A stretch of 32,630 nucleotides of DNA from Gammaproteobacteria bacterium (GTDB lineage Bacteria; Pseudomonadota; Gammaproteobacteria; S012-40): positions 1 through 32,630 of the forward strand of contig JAOUJM010000024.1 of assembly GCA_029883265.1 (NCBI GenBank), given 5' to 3'. A program made the position numbers and the translations under genes. How positions within the stretch are numbered: the first letter of the stretch is position 1; every line of letters begins with the position of its first letter. Of the stretch, positions 6,260-27,812 are shown piece by piece. A model generated the notes under the pieces. The model saw only the letters and a program-made list of their open reading frames with translations, did no database searches and was not told the DNA's origin.

Positions 6260-9181
6260 ATGGCACTTTTTGTCCGTAGGGCAGGTTCGTGCTGGATCTT
6301 AAGTTTATTTTTATTTGCGCAAACTGCGTTAGCGGCATTGCTACCTCCGGATATTAATGCCCCAAGTGATGGTTTTCTCGTCAAATTCAAAGCTGATACG
6401 ATTCGTAGTAGCCAAGTTCATACCTTGAGTACACTCGGTTTAAGCTCGCAACGACAATTCAATCTAGTCAGTGGTCTTTCCTTAGTAAGTGCTGCCCCGG
6501 GTCAGGACAAGCTTTCCATTCTTACCACCTTACAAAACAATGCCAATATTGAGTATGTGGAACCGAATTATTTAATTTCGGTTAATCTCACACCAAATGA
6601 CCCACGCTTTAGTGATCAATATGCACTAAATAATATCGGACAGACCAATGGCACCAGTGATGCGGATGTCGATGCGCTTGAAGCCTGGAATATTAGCAGT
6701 GGCAACGAAGTATTAGTTGCTGTACTGGATACTGGAGTGGATTATAATCACCCAGATTTACGCGCTAATATTTGGGCTAATCCTAACGAAACAATTAACG
6801 GTATCGACGATGATAATAACGGCTATGTCGACGACATACGCGGTTGGGATTTCGCCAATTCCGATAATGATCCATTCGATGATCATATGCATGGTACTCA
6901 TGTTTCAGGCATTATCGCAGCCGTAGGAAATAATGGAATCGGCGTTACGGGTGTTAACTGGCGCGCTAAAATAATTCCATTGAAATTTATTTCCGATGTG
7001 GGGATTGGTTCCACAGCAAATGCGATTCTCGCGCTTGAATATGCGGTTAATATGGGTGCGCGCATTTCAAACTCCTCCTGGGGAGGTGGTCCTTTTAGTC
7101 AGGCGCTATTTGATGCAATTCAAGCGGCCAATCAGGCGGGGCATTTATTTGTCGCAGCGGCGGGTAATGATGGATTGGATGCAAATGCTCCGGGAGGACA
7201 ATTGCATTATCCATCGTCATTTAATTTACCCAATATCATTTCGGTTGCAGCAAGTAACGACTTTGATCAATTGGCAAGTTTTTCAAATTACGGTGTGGTG
7301 TCGGTTGATTTAGCAGCACCTGGTTTTCAAATTCTCAGTACCTTGCCTAATGGCGTTTATAATCCAATGAGTGGTACGTCGATGGCATCACCAATGGTCG
7401 CAGGTGCCGCAAGTTTGATTTTATCAGTGGCACCGAATTTAAGCGTGGCACAATTACGCGCCACCTTACTCGACAATGTCGATGTTAAGGCTAATTTAAA
7501 TGGATTTGTTGCTACCGCTGGACGCTTGAATGTTTTTAATAGTCTACAAACCTTAGCAAGCAATTTAAGTGTGTCACCGCAAACAGCTACACTTGGCGTA
7601 GATTCCAGTCTTGCATTTCAAGTGGCTGGTGGACGTGCGCCTTACACGTGGACGCTCTCCAATACAAGTTTGGCACAAATTAATTCCGCCAGCGGTGTGT
7701 TAAGTCCTTTTGCTCCTGGTGTAGTGCAAGTCATTGTCACTGACAGTTTAGGCAACACAGCACGTTCAGGAGACATACGAATTTTGCAAGTGATGGTGCA
7801 GCCGCAAACGGCTACGATCACCATTGGGCAACAACTCAACTTTAGTGCCAGTGGTGGTGTTGCTCCATATGCTTGGCAAAGTAGCGCGCCACTTGTTGCC
7901 AATATTGATCCGCAAAGTGGAGTACTTACTGCAAACTCGCCGGGGCAAGTCAGTGTTACAGTTGTTGATGCCAATGGTATCAATGGTCGTAGTCAGTTTA
8001 TCAACATCATGCCGACGGCCGCGCTTAATCTAGCACCACGAAATGCCACGTTGGCGCCAAATGAAGGCATGGTATTTAGTGTGAGTGGTGGTATAGCACC
8101 CTATGTTTGGAATAGCTCAGATCCCATCGTTGCAAGCATTAATCAAAATGGATTATTAAGCGCACATCAGGCCGGTACAACCGTTGTTAGTGTGAGTGAC
8201 GCGCTGGGCAATTCAATCAGTACTAATTCGATTGCGGTGCAGTCACTCGGCGTTACTTTAAGCGTTTCTGAATTACAAATTAACCAAACCATTGTTCTAG
8301 ACGCGACTGGTGGTACTCCACCCTATCAATGGCGGGTGACCAACTCCGCTGTTGCGAGCATTGATAATAGTGGCGTTTTGACTGGACTGAGTCCCGGTTT
8401 GGTGCGCGTATTTATTATGGATGCAACCGGTCAGCGTGGACAATCAACTCCTGTCTTGATTACTGAATCACAACTGTTAACATTTTCACCACGTAGTGCC
8501 ATTCTCAAACCGAGTGAATCAATTTTATTGACTGTCTCCGGTGGCACACCACCTTATATTTGGGAGAGTGACAATACGGCAGTATTAGCTATCGATGCAA
8601 ACACCAATATGTTATCGGCGCAAGGTGTCGGTTTTGCGAGTTTAAAATTATTTGATGCAAGCGGTGCTAGCGCGAGTTCTAATTTGTTTGAAGTGCGTGA
8701 AATTAATGTTACACCAGCGAGTTTTAGTTTATTGCTTGGCGAGACGCTAAATTTTTCTGCGAGCGGTGGTCGTGCTCCCTATACTTGGTCAATTAAAGAA
8801 TCTGCCGTGGCCAGTATCGATAATTCCGGACTCGCCACTAGTCGCAGCATCGGTGGTTTTACTGTGGTTGCAACCGATGTTGATGGCGTTGAAGGCAGTA
8901 GTGGTTTGATAACTGTAACTGACGGTAGTGCGCCAGCGACGCATGAACTTTTGGTATTGCCCAATACTGCAACCTTGTCTGCGCGTGGCAGTGGTATTCA
9001 ATTTATTGCAAATGGTGGTGTAGCGCCGTATAGCTTCAGTTTGAGTAATACTGCTGTGGGTAGCATTAATGCAAATTCAGGTCAGTTTACGCCAAATCGC
9101 AATACAACAGGAACAACCACCATCATCCTAAAAGATGGTGATGGTCATGTTATTGAGTCTGGAACGATTTCAGTTTTATGA
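6260..9181 (+). CDS. Secreted S8 subtilase with seven C-terminal Ig-like (Big-type) repeats
   Basis: A 973-residue secreted serine protease. A signal peptide (residues 1 to about 25, ending QTALAALL) is followed by an I9-like propeptide (FLVKFKADTIRSS to IEYVEPNY, about 35-110). The subtilisin catalytic triad is complete: Asp157 in VAVLDTGVDYNHP, His211 in HMHGTHVSG and Ser374 in GTSMASPMVAG; the oxyanion Asn is in AAAGNDG. From about residue 430 to the end there are seven repeats of roughly 75-83 residues, each containing GG-x-x-PY-x-W/F (near residues 456, 530, 608, 683, 760, 835 and 918) followed by A-x-I-N/D-x-x-x-G-x-L and a V-x-D-x-x-G strand. These resemble bacterial Ig-like (Big2-type) domains. 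The ATG at 6260 has an upstream GGGGAAGGGA. It stands alone, convergent with the next gene. The repeat stalk suggests a surface-held or large extracellular enzyme; substrate unknown. Confidence 0.93.
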   Translation: MALFVRRAGSCWILSLFLFAQTALAALLPPDINAPSDGFLVKFKADTIRSSQVHTLSTLGLSSQRQFNLVSGLSLVSAAPGQDKLSILTTLQNNANIEYVEPNYLISVNLTPNDPRFSDQYALNNIGQTNGTSDADVDALEAWNISSGNEVLVAVLDTGVDYNHPDLRANIWANPNETINGIDDDNNGYVDDIRGWDFANSDNDPFDDHMHGTHVSGIIAAVGNNGIGVTGVNWRAKIIPLKFISDVGIGSTANAILALEYAVNMGARISNSSWGGGPFSQALFDAIQAANQAGHLFVAAAGNDGLDANAPGGQLHYPSSFNLPNIISVAASNDFDQLASFSNYGVVSVDLAAPGFQILSTLPNGVYNPMSGTSMASPMVAGAASLILSVAPNLSVAQLRATLLDNVDVKANLNGFVATAGRLNVFNSLQTLASNLSVSPQTATLGVDSSLAFQVAGGRAPYTWTLSNTSLAQINSASGVLSPFAPGVVQVIVTDSLGNTARSGDIRILQVMVQPQTATITIGQQLNFSASGGVAPYAWQSSAPLVANIDPQSGVLTANSPGQVSVTVVDANGINGRSQFINIMPTAALNLAPRNATLAPNEGMVFSVSGGIAPYVWNSSDPIVASINQNGLLSAHQAGTTVVSVSDALGNSISTNSIAVQSLGVTLSVSELQINQTIVLDATGGTPPYQWRVTNSAVASIDNSGVLTGLSPGLVRVFIMDATGQRGQSTPVLITESQLLTFSPRSAILKPSESILLTVSGGTPPYIWESDNTAVLAIDANTNMLSAQGVGFASLKLFDASGASASSNLFEVREINVTPASFSLLLGETLNFSASGGRAPYTWSIKESAVASIDNSGLATSRSIGGFTVVATDVDGVEGSSGLITVTDGSAPATHELLVLPNTATLSARGSGIQFIANGGVAPYSFSLSNTAVGSINANSGQFTPNRNTTGTTTIILKDGDGHVIESGTISVL

Positions 9182-24297: not shown

Positions 24298-24924
24298 ATG
24301 CCATTTCACAAAACGATAATGCCGACTTCGGAAAATGCCTTGCCAGGTCGCACTGAACAAATGCGCATTCATGGCACCCACATCGTTTTAGGCAGCGCTA
24401 TGTTGCCGCCTTTCCCTGAAAATTGTTCGAGCATTATTGTTGGCTTAGGTTGTTTTTGGGGTGCGGAAAAATTATTTTGGCAACAAGTGGGTGTTTATAG
24501 CACCGCCGTAGGTTATTCCGCAGGCTTTACACCTAATCCAAGCTATGAAGAAGTGTGTAGCGGCATGACCGGGCATAATGAAGTTGTATTAGTTGTGTAT
24601 GAAAACAAGCCAGATGTATTTGAAAATGTATTACGTACATTCTGGCAAGGACATAATCCTACCCAGGGCATGCGCCAAGGCAATGATGTTGGCACGCAAT
24701 ACCGCTCGGGTATTTATTTTAATTCAGCACAACAGCAACAAATAGCTGTCACTAGTCGTGATGAATATCAACTAAAACTCAATCAAAATAACTACGGAAC
24801 GATCAGTACTGAAATTTTGCCTGCAACTGAATTTTTTTACGCAGAAGATTATCACCAGCAATACTTGCAAAAAAATCCAAACGGCTATTGTGGCTTGGGT
24901 GGCACCGGTGTGTGTTTGGATTGA
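24298..24924 (+). CDS. msrA: Peptide methionine sulfoxide reductase MsrA
   Basis: A 208-residue MsrA, which reduces methionine-S-sulfoxide in proteins with thioredoxin. The nucleophile is Cys52 in VGLGCFWGAEKLFW. Substrate-pocket elements VGYSAGFTPNPSYEEVCSG and GHNEVVLVVY are present, then QGHNPTQGMRQGNDVGTQYRSGIY. Two C-terminal cysteines (Cys198 and Cys206 in NGYCGLGGTGVCLD) are the resolving pair, as in E. coli MsrA (212 residues). The N-terminal extension with NALPGRTEQM also matches the long enterobacterial form. The ATG directly abuts the cmoM stop, and the AAAGGA ribosome-binding site lies in the end of cmoM. Cytoplasmic. Confidence 0.95.
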   Translation: MPFHKTIMPTSENALPGRTEQMRIHGTHIVLGSAMLPPFPENCSSIIVGLGCFWGAEKLFWQQVGVYSTAVGYSAGFTPNPSYEEVCSGMTGHNEVVLVVYENKPDVFENVLRTFWQGHNPTQGMRQGNDVGTQYRSGIYFNSAQQQQIAVTSRDEYQLKLNQNNYGTISTEILPATEFFYAEDYHQQYLQKNPNGYCGLGGTGVCLD

Positions 24925-25801: not shown

Positions 25802-25943
25802 AGAATTATTCGCCAAGTTTGTTGTGCTTATGAAAACTGCTATGCTTCTGTTAATTCGGCAAAAGTCGACACGACTTTAGTCTTGCTATAAATTACGCGG
25901 TCAATGTTTTAGTTAAACACGTTTTCATTTGAGGTGATATTAG

Positions 25944-26339
25944 TTGCAGGTTCAGTACTGTTTACAAAAACAAACTCGTCGCCATTTGCCTGAGAGACAA
26001 ACAAATGAATCTATTAGTGAATTAGGTAGGGACCAGCAATTATGCTGCATCGATTGTGGCAATGTTATCACCGCTGTGCAATTTGCAATTGAGCATTTAG
26101 GCAAGCAGCGTCACTTTGTACAAAATGCAGCAGGGGAGCAATACCATATTGCTTTATACGAACAAGCGTTTGGCTGTGGCATTGCTGGAGTACCAACAAC
26201 TGACTTTACTTGGTTTCCTCCGCATAGCTGGCGGTTTGCGTATTGTAGACGTTGTCGTTTACAGTTGGGTTGGCAATTTAGTGGTAGAAAACCTTTTTTT
26301 GCATTAATTGAACGATTGCTTAAAGCTTGTGATGAATAG
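25944..26339 (+). CDS. Free-standing CULT domain protein (bacterial cereblon-like)
   Basis: A 131-residue protein made of a single CULT domain, the thalidomide-binding fold of cereblon. The start is a TTG at 25944, chosen because GAGGTG is seven bases upstream. Zinc ligands are Cys35 and Cys38 (CIDCG) and Cys101 and Cys104 (YCRRC). The three tryptophans of the ligand cage are Trp90 and Trp96 (TWFPPHSW) and Trp110 (LGWQF). Spacing W-x5-W-x4-C-x2-C-x5-W equals that of human cereblon (W380, W386, C391, C394, W400). The human His378 position is Phe88. Single-domain bacterial CULT proteins are known, for example the Magnetospirillum MsCI4 used as a structural model, but their natural ligand in bacteria is not settled. 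No signal peptide. It is convergent with the J-domain operon, seven bases between stops. Fold is very sure, function unknown. Confidence 0.88.
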   Translation: MQVQYCLQKQTRRHLPERQTNESISELGRDQQLCCIDCGNVITAVQFAIEHLGKQRHFVQNAAGEQYHIALYEQAFGCGIAGVPTTDFTWFPPHSWRFAYCRRCRLQLGWQFSGRKPFFALIERLLKACDE

Positions 26340-26346
26340 TTAATAG

Positions 26347-27108
26347 TCAACCCTTGTGATTCAATAATACCGATTTGGCTTGATTGACCTTGGCTGCGAG
26401 ATAGGTCGAACCCCCACGATCTGGATGTAGTTTCTGCATTAATTTGCGGTGAGCGCTAATAATGTCCGCTTCGCTAGCATCTTTGGAAATACCAAGAATA
26501 TCGTATGCCTCATGTGTTGTCATATCGCTAGCTACATTTGTCGTATCGTTATGGGGTGACTGACCAAAGCGTTGCCACAAGTCAGGGTGATAGCGTTCGA
26601 TAAATGCTTGAATTAAGGGAACGGCGTCTTCATCTTGTTTAACAATATACTGATAAAGTTCAACAAGCTCCTCCGGGGATAAATCATGTAAACTTTTTCC
26701 GATAAATTGTCCAGCTAAGACAGTGCCGTGCAATTCACCGGTGTCATGATCGAGTTGTAAACGTAATGTTGCTGTTTCAACTTTGGAGGCCTGTTGTTGA
26801 TTTGGCGATTTATTGCTTTGGTATTGGCGAAACAAACCATGTAAAAACGGAGCGAAACGTAAAAGTAGCGGTGCACCACGTTGCATTAAAGTGAACATCA
26901 CGCCAAAAGCCGAAGCAATCGCTGCAAATAACCAATGCATACGCCCGCTCGCGGCAAGAATTAGCAGTAATACGACGAGCACAATAAAAAACATTTTTTG
27001 CATTTGCTGGCGTGTGGCTGCACTGAGTTTGTTATTGCGCCATCGCTTATAGGTATAGACTAAAAGCAATGTAAGTGCGCCAACAAAAATGATAAGTAAA
27101 GGATGCAT
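26347..27108 (-). CDS. Membrane-anchored J-domain (DnaJ-like) protein
   Basis: A 253-residue protein with the J-domain at the C-terminus. One membrane helix opens the protein (LLIIFVGALTLLLVYTY) and one or two follow after a basic stretch (MFFIVLVVLLLILAASG and MHWLFAAIASAFGVMFTL). The middle (about 120-195) is soluble. The J-domain (about 197-253: EAYDILGISKDASEADIISAHRKLMQKLHPDRGGSTYLAAKVNQAKSVLL) has the essential HPD at residues 228-230, so it should stimulate a DnaK-type ATPase. The layout resembles the Tim14/Pam18-type proteins of the mitochondrial import motor. Third gene of an operon with a BASS transporter and a VWA protein; its ATG follows the VWA stop by two bases, with no separate ribosome-binding site. 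Confidence 0.85.
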   Translation of the reverse strand: MHPLLIIFVGALTLLLVYTYKRWRNNKLSAATRQQMQKMFFIVLVVLLLILAASGRMHWLFAAIASAFGVMFTLMQRGAPLLLRFAPFLHGLFRQYQSNKSPNQQQASKVETATLRLQLDHDTGELHGTVLAGQFIGKSLHDLSPEELVELYQYIVKQDEDAVPLIQAFIERYHPDLWQRFGQSPHNDTTNVASDMTTHEAYDILGISKDASEADIISAHRKLMQKLHPDRGGSTYLAAKVNQAKSVLLNHKG

Positions 27109-27110
27109 GC

Positions 27111-27812
27111 TTAGCTAATTTGGTGAGTGAGTTGTTTGGCCAGGTTTGGATGTCGCAATAAATGGTTTTTAAATGCTGAGCGACCACCACTGGAAAAAAT
27201 AGCGACTGCTTGAATCAATGCACTCAATTGGGCAGCGCTATTTTGGTCAAAACGTGCATAAGCGCCTTGTGACAGGTTTGCCATTTGTTGAAAACAGGTT
27301 TGTGCAGCGACATCATAGCCTTCCTGAAAAATGAAAAGTGGTAGGCCCATTATACCTGCCTGACCAGCCAAGTTACACAACTTATCGACATCTTCTTCGA
27401 CACAGTCACCGATAAAAGCCAATGCATTAACTTTTTTCTGCTGGGTTTCCTTAAGCGCGTGTTGTAATAAACGAGCAATTTGTGTGTAGCCACCGGCACA
27501 GGATACTTGGTTCATTTGCTGTAATAGTTGATTACTATCATTAAGCCAATGGCTGGCGTAGAATTCGTTGAAACCTCGGTAATAACATAACTGAATGCTT
27601 AAGCCATTTAATTGCTGCGCTTGCACAAACATTTCTGATTGCAATTGACAAGCCTGATCCCAGGTTGCTTGACGACTAGCGGTCGCATCTAAGGCAAATA
27701 TTAAACGTCCACTACTAGGTGTTTGGGTTTTCAATGGCGTATTTTTAACTTGAGTTAAAAAATTATCCACTGCCTGCTTATTGCCAGTTTTATCCAGCGA
27801 CCGATTTTTCAT
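27111..27812 (-). CDS. VWA domain protein in the J-domain operon
   Basis: A 233-residue von Willebrand factor A-like protein. The strand-then-motif GRLIFALDATASR (Asp42, Thr44, Ser46) is the MIDAS DxSxS with Thr in the second position, followed by the MIDAS Thr in GGYTQIARLL and the third element ALAFIGDCVEEDVDKL. No signal peptide or membrane helix, so it acts in the cytoplasm. It overlaps the upstream transporter gene by four bases (ATGA) and precedes the J-domain gene by two bases. A recurring pairing of VWA and small membrane DnaJ-like proteins in other proteobacteria is my recollection, not something this window shows; it would imply a chaperone or complex-assembly role. Domain assignment is good; partner and metal dependence are inferred. 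Confidence 0.78.
   Translation of the reverse strand: MKNRSLDKTGNKQAVDNFLTQVKNTPLKTQTPSSGRLIFALDATASRQATWDQACQLQSEMFVQAQQLNGLSIQLCYYRGFNEFYASHWLNDSNQLLQQMNQVSCAGGYTQIARLLQHALKETQQKKVNALAFIGDCVEEDVDKLCNLAGQAGIMGLPLFIFQEGYDVAAQTCFQQMANLSQGAYARFDQNSAAQLSALIQAVAIFSSGGRSAFKNHLLRHPNLAKQLTHQIS

What the first reader, a model, noticed from the sequence alone, without database searches (positions are those of the whole stretch)
25944..26339. Single-domain bacterial cereblon (CULT) protein with complete zinc and tri-Trp sites
Seen: Cys35, Cys38, Cys101, Cys104 and Trp90, Trp96, Trp110 with exactly the spacing of the human cereblon thalidomide pocket. Known: this fold binds thalidomide-type imides and cyclic imides from degraded proteins; bacterial single-domain forms exist, but their cellular role is unclear. 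Odd: human His378 is Phe here, which would change a ligand hydrogen bond. The gene is convergent with a membrane J-domain/VWA operon, so a link to protein quality control is worth testing but is only suggested by position.
Basis: partly seen in the sequence, partly recalled or inferred. Interest (0 to 1): 0.72.

Follow-up and report, generated by a model that had tools for sequence, protein, structure and literature searches.

The report
Bacterial single-domain cereblon-like (CULT) protein
This is an ordinary but unusually diverged bacterial relative of the human thalidomide-binding protein cereblon; its binding pocket is intact, but the suggested link to the neighbouring chaperone-type genes does not hold up in other genomes.

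Summary
ORF 25944-26339(+) encodes a 131-aa, single-domain CULT protein. Sequence matches: Magnetospirillum cereblon isoform 4 (MsCI4), E 2.5e-13; cereblon chains, E about 1e-8 to 1e-9. The AlphaFold2 model (pLDDT above 90 over the domain) overlays thalidomide-bound MsCI4 at about 1 A over about 100 residues. The four Cys and three Trp are present.

Two interpretive points fail. Phe at the human His378 position is not odd: MsCI4 has Phe77 there, 69% of 91 bacterial relatives have Phe, and the ligand hydrogen bond comes from the backbone (PMC8900816). The J-domain/VWA link has no support: the VWA-J pair is conserved in 9 of 9 other genomes without CULT beside it, and none of 91 other CULT loci carries the VWA gene. 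No gene type recurs widely beside CULT.

What is unusual is divergence elsewhere: NPxG reads NAAG (Pro 97% elsewhere), the loop Gly is Pro (Gly 95%), the Tyr of human Y384 is His (19% share it), Cys71 is Leu (Cys 97%). Best explanation: a cytoplasmic zinc beta-tent protein binding cyclic-imide or uracil-type groups. Physiological ligand and role are inferred, not shown.

The parts
25944..26339 (+). CULT (cereblon-type thalidomide-binding domain) protein, 131 aa, TTG start
25931..25937 (+). likely ribosome-binding site GAGGTGA, 6 nt before the TTG start
   Evidence: read directly from sequence
26046..26057 (+). first zinc CxxC (Cys35, Cys38)
   Evidence: 100% conserved in 90 aligned relatives
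26124..26135 (+). tip of the inserted hairpin, NAAG (residues 61-64), where the family has NPxG
   Evidence: Asn 100%, Pro 97% in relatives; motif described in PMC4449219
26205..26231 (+). ligand loop FTWFPPHSW (residues 88-96): Phe88 (= human His378), Trp90, Pro93, His94 (= human Tyr384), Trp96
26244..26255 (+). second zinc CxxC (Cys101, Cys104)
26271..26279 (+). third cage Trp110 and cage-base Phe112 (human-like; MsCI4 has Tyr101)
   Evidence: PMC8900816
26347..27108 (-). membrane protein with C-terminal J-domain, convergent neighbour, judged NOT part of the CULT system
   Evidence: Pfam DnaJ E 1.2e-10; conserved with the VWA gene in genomes without adjacent CULT
27111..27812 (-). VWA-like protein, operon partner of the J-domain gene, judged NOT part of the CULT system
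   Evidence: weak Pfam VWA_2 E 0.0098; pairs with the J-domain gene in 9 of 9 genomes

Best explanation
A cytoplasmic, single-domain CULT protein of the MsCI4 type. A zinc ion held by Cys35/38/101/104 pins two beta-sheets into the beta-tent, and Trp90, Trp96 and Trp110 form an aromatic cage over Phe112. The cage binds a small planar ring with an imide or uracil-type face through backbone bonds from Phe88 and Trp90. The most likely natural role is recognition of such groups, either free (uridine-like) or at the C-terminus of damaged proteins (cyclic imide), acting as a reader that needs a partner, since the protein has no second domain. Shown here: family membership, residues and predicted fold. 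Inferred from MsCI4 and human cereblon: ligand binding. Conjecture: the physiological ligand and downstream partner.
For: MsCI4 and cereblon matches by sequence. Predicted fold at Z 18.8, 1.1 A over 101 residues to thalidomide-bound MsCI4 Y101F, which like this protein has Phe at the cage base; Z about 17 to human CRBN. All four Cys, Trp110, Asn61, Gly109 and Phe118 are 100% conserved in the relatives and kept here. MsCI4 binds thalidomide and uridine, and its two canonical ligand hydrogen bonds come from backbone atoms (PMC8900816, PMC4449219). Human cereblon binds C-terminal cyclic imides (PMC11974815). The first 30 residues are polar and poorly predicted, with no signal peptide apparent by eye.
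Against: Several near-invariant positions differ: P62A, C71L, G93P, H107Q, G120A; His replaces Tyr at the human Y384 position, whose Ala mutant is deficient in thalidomide binding (PMC4449219). The terminal branch is the second longest in the tree (2.77 against a median of 0.78), and Pfam Yippee-Mis18 misses it although it matches 51 of 54 members of the alignment. Cage geometry was judged from backbone overlay only. No binding data exist for this protein.
Confidence: 0.7

Rival explanations
1. A component of a protein quality-control pathway together with the adjacent membrane J-domain and VWA proteins.
For: Convergent position, stop codons 7 bp apart; cereblon reads a mark of damaged proteins; a peptide methionine sulfoxide reductase A-like gene lies 1 kb away (24298-24924).
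Against: VWA-J pair conserved in 9 of 9 other genomes without CULT in the fetched flanks. Of 9 genomes with a full-length membrane J orthologue one (G026) has CULT, about 260 kb away, near the background of 15 in 185. None of the other CULT loci has the VWA gene; one has any J-domain match (L050). The same-family genome G003 has CULT but no membrane J orthologue.
Confidence: 0.04
2. A fast-diverging CULT protein whose cage now binds a different ligand, or binds imides only weakly, because the hairpin tip and the ligand loop have changed.
For: NAAG for NPxG, Pro for loop Gly, His for Tyr, Leu for Cys71; second longest branch. MsCI4 Pro51 and Phe77 line the channel by which larger ligands leave the cage (PMC8900816).
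Against: All cage, backbone-bonding and zinc positions are kept; His94 is found in 19% and Pro93 in 4% of relatives; the model is confident.
Confidence: 0.22
3. A decaying, non-functional remnant of a CULT gene.
For: Divergent; sparse distribution (15 of 185 relatives, 21 of 398 genomes of the phylum).
Against: Intact frame, good ribosome-binding site, and all invariant functional residues kept at about 30% overall identity to relatives.
Confidence: 0.04

Closest known systems
MsCI4 (cereblon isoform 4, MGR_0879) of Magnetospirillum gryphiswaldense, PDB 4V2Y/4V32
   Same: Single CULT domain, two CxxC, three cage Trp at the same spacing, Phe at the human His378 position, acidic residue before it; model overlays at about 1 A.
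   Different: About 30% identical; Phe112 instead of Tyr101 at the cage base (human-like), NAAG instead of NPAG, Pro93 instead of Gly, His94 instead of Tyr83.
Thalidomide-binding domain of cereblon (CRBN; human, mouse, chicken structures)
   Same: Fold (Z about 17), zinc site, tri-Trp cage, Phe at the cage base.
   Different: No LON domain, no DDB1-binding region, no ubiquitin ligase context; two residues shorter between the first CxxC and the cage.
Yippee / Mis18 and MsrB (SelR) beta-tent families
   Same: Related zinc beta-tent fold (PMC4287342); most CULT relatives score weakly on Pfam Yippee-Mis18.
   Different: The window protein itself has no Pfam match and its best sequence and structure matches are all CULT proteins.

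Membership tests
CULT domain family, bacterial group (PMC4287342) | Two CxxC motifs for one structural zinc | tested here: met
   Cys35/38 and Cys101/104, 100% conserved in 90 relatives; zinc content itself not measured
CULT domain family, bacterial group (PMC4287342) | Three cage tryptophans | tested here: met
   Trp90, Trp96, Trp110 align with MsCI4 Trp79/85/99 without gaps
CULT domain family, bacterial group (PMC4287342) | Beta-tent fold | tested here: met
   AlphaFold2 model, Z up to 18.8 to MsCI4
CULT domain family, bacterial group (PMC4287342) | Protein consists of the CULT domain alone | tested here: met
   131 aa; domain spans residues 31-128, preceded by about 30 poorly predicted residues
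[quoted passage not shown]
   NAAG here; Pro is present in 97% of relatives, Ala in 1%
CULT domain family, bacterial group (PMC4287342) | Binds thalidomide, uridine or cyclic imides | not testable with these tools
   needs purified protein
Cereblon proper (CRBN, E3 substrate receptor) | LON domain and DDB1-binding region before the CULT domain | tested here: not met
   Only about 30 residues precede the domain

The most novel reading that the evidence does not exclude
A CULT protein whose hairpin tip and ligand loop (NAAG, Pro93-His94) have been remodelled around an intact tri-Trp cage, giving a ligand preference different from MsCI4 and human cereblon; the natural comparison would help reveal what bacterial CULT proteins bind.
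Probability: 0.2. Interest if true: 0.45.

Novelty: new member of a known kind. Interest (0 to 1): 0.25.

Why it matters
Bacterial CULT proteins are standard stand-ins for cereblon in drug design, yet their own role is unknown. This member adds a natural variant with a human-like cage base (Phe) and altered surrounding loops. The neighbour survey of 92 loci shows that gene context does not point to one pathway, which is useful negative information.

Tried and rejected
J-domain/VWA link: rejected by neighbour and co-occurrence surveys. A conserved partner of any type: pooled ORF clustering over 92 loci and Pfam tallies of the adjacent genes gave only lineage-limited neighbours (HemD/tetrapyrrole methylase 7 of 82, TauE 5, FIST 3 upstream; EF-G 4, SLT 4 of 78 downstream). 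Mobile or viral carriage: no match in IMG/VR, phage or plasmid collections (one query each, so mainly close relatives are excluded). Pfam and NCBIfam on the window protein: nothing significant. Tree placement of the window protein: unresolved, long branch, no supported group. Empty-site comparison: not possible, because the flanking HDOD and SBF genes are not beside the J-VWA pair in relatives.

Full report
What is there. ORF 25944-26339 on the + strand starts with TTG preceded by GAGGTGA at a 6-nt spacing and encodes 131 residues. It is the only CULT gene in its genome. The reverse strand of the same stretch is full of stops. The gene converges with the J-domain gene, with stop codons 7 bp apart.

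Identity. phmmer against solved structures gives MsCI4 at 2.5e-13 and cereblon chains at about 1e-8 to 1e-9, with no other family below 0.09. A profile of 54 relatives gives 9e-37 and 1e-22. AlphaFold2 from that alignment gives mean pLDDT 87 and above 90 over the domain. Foldseek and VIA-align put all best matches on MsCI4 (Z 18.8, 1.1 A over 101 residues; 0.7 A over 98 for 9htq) and then on human cereblon (Z about 17). This includes the thalidomide complex of MsCI4 Y101F, whose cage base is Phe as in the window protein.

Residues. In 91 other bacterial CULT proteins found by search (Trp90, Phe91 and Trp96 were partly selected by the search pattern), the four Cys, Trp110, Asn61, Gly109 and Phe118 are invariant, and the window protein has all of them. 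The position of human His378 is Phe in 69%, His in 14%, Trp in 7% and Tyr in 5%; MsCI4 has Phe77, and the bond to the glutarimide comes from the backbone (PMC8900816). The real departures are Ala62 for Pro (97%), Leu71 for Cys (97%), Pro93 for Gly (95%), Gln107 for His (91%), Ala120 for Gly (91%), and His94 for Tyr (79%; His 19%). The hairpin that carries NPxG steadies the first cage Trp, and the Tyr is the one whose Ala mutant in human cereblon is thalidomide-binding deficient (PMC4449219). The protein has the second longest branch in the tree, and Pfam Yippee-Mis18, which matches 51 of 54 members of the alignment at E up to 1, misses it. It is a diverged member with an intact core.

Spacing. 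From the first cage Trp onwards the spacing equals the human one (human numbers Trp380/386/400 from PMC8900816; human Cys numbers from my own knowledge); between the first CxxC and that Trp it equals MsCI4 but is two residues shorter than cereblon (stretch lengths).

Distribution. 15 of 185 relatives, including the window's own genome, and 21 of 398 genomes across the phylum have the gene. In named genomes it occurs in Gamma- and Alphaproteobacteria, sulfate-reducing lineages, Myxococcota, Acidobacteriota and single genomes of other phyla. This widens the 2015 list of mainly delta-proteobacteria (PMC4287342), partly because of more genomes and renamed taxa. One relative's contig (G013:C16, 33,742 bases) has the same length as a contig named Gammaproteobacteria (QILK01000204.1) and the same CULT protein, so the window's class is most likely Gammaproteobacteria (inference). 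No viral, phage or plasmid copies were found.

Neighbours. The membrane J-domain protein and the VWA-like protein are a gene pair in 9 of 9 other genomes, none with CULT in the fetched flanks; eight of those genomes have no CULT match, and the ninth (G026) has it about 260 kb away. Among 92 CULT loci none besides the window has the VWA gene, and one other has a J-domain match. Tallies of the directly adjacent genes show no recurrent type beyond lineage-limited cases. Many loci were on short contigs, so the survey covers up to 8-10 kb each side, less in some. The quality-control link by position is therefore not supported; a link by biochemistry remains open, because cereblon reads C-terminal cyclic imides on damaged proteins (PMC11974815).

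How it most likely works. Zinc-pinned beta-tent, tri-Trp cage over Phe112, backbone bonds from Phe88 and Trp90 to the imide or uracil face of a ligand, cytoplasmic, acting as a reader that needs a partner. Fold and residues are shown by computation; binding is inferred from MsCI4; ligand and partner are conjecture.

Noticed in passing
window 24298-24924: Peptide methionine sulfoxide reductase A-like gene (GCFWGAEK motif) 1 kb from the CULT gene, after a CmoM-like methyltransferase. MsrA relatives occur near CULT in only 2 of the other loci (L048, L100).
   Followed up: partly
L021, L028, L041, L044, L048, L065, L080, directly upstream of CULT: In seven loci, mostly Desulfobulbaceae or deltaproteobacteria, CULT follows a HemD/tetrapyrrole methylase gene on the same strand, some overlapping, suggesting co-transcription with siroheme synthesis in that lineage.
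   Followed up: partly
L035, L097, L102, L103, L107, directly upstream of CULT: In five gammaproteobacterial loci a TauE/SafE exporter gene lies directly upstream on the same strand, in L035 overlapping CULT and in L103 within 3 nt.
   Followed up: partly
window 26347-27812: A membrane protein with C-terminal J-domain and a VWA-like protein form a conserved two-gene unit in many related genomes; the VWA-like protein barely matches Pfam and may be an undescribed family.
   Followed up: partly
window 6260-9181: Large subtilase-type protein (973 aa) with many repeated Ig-like segments after the protease domain.
   Followed up: no
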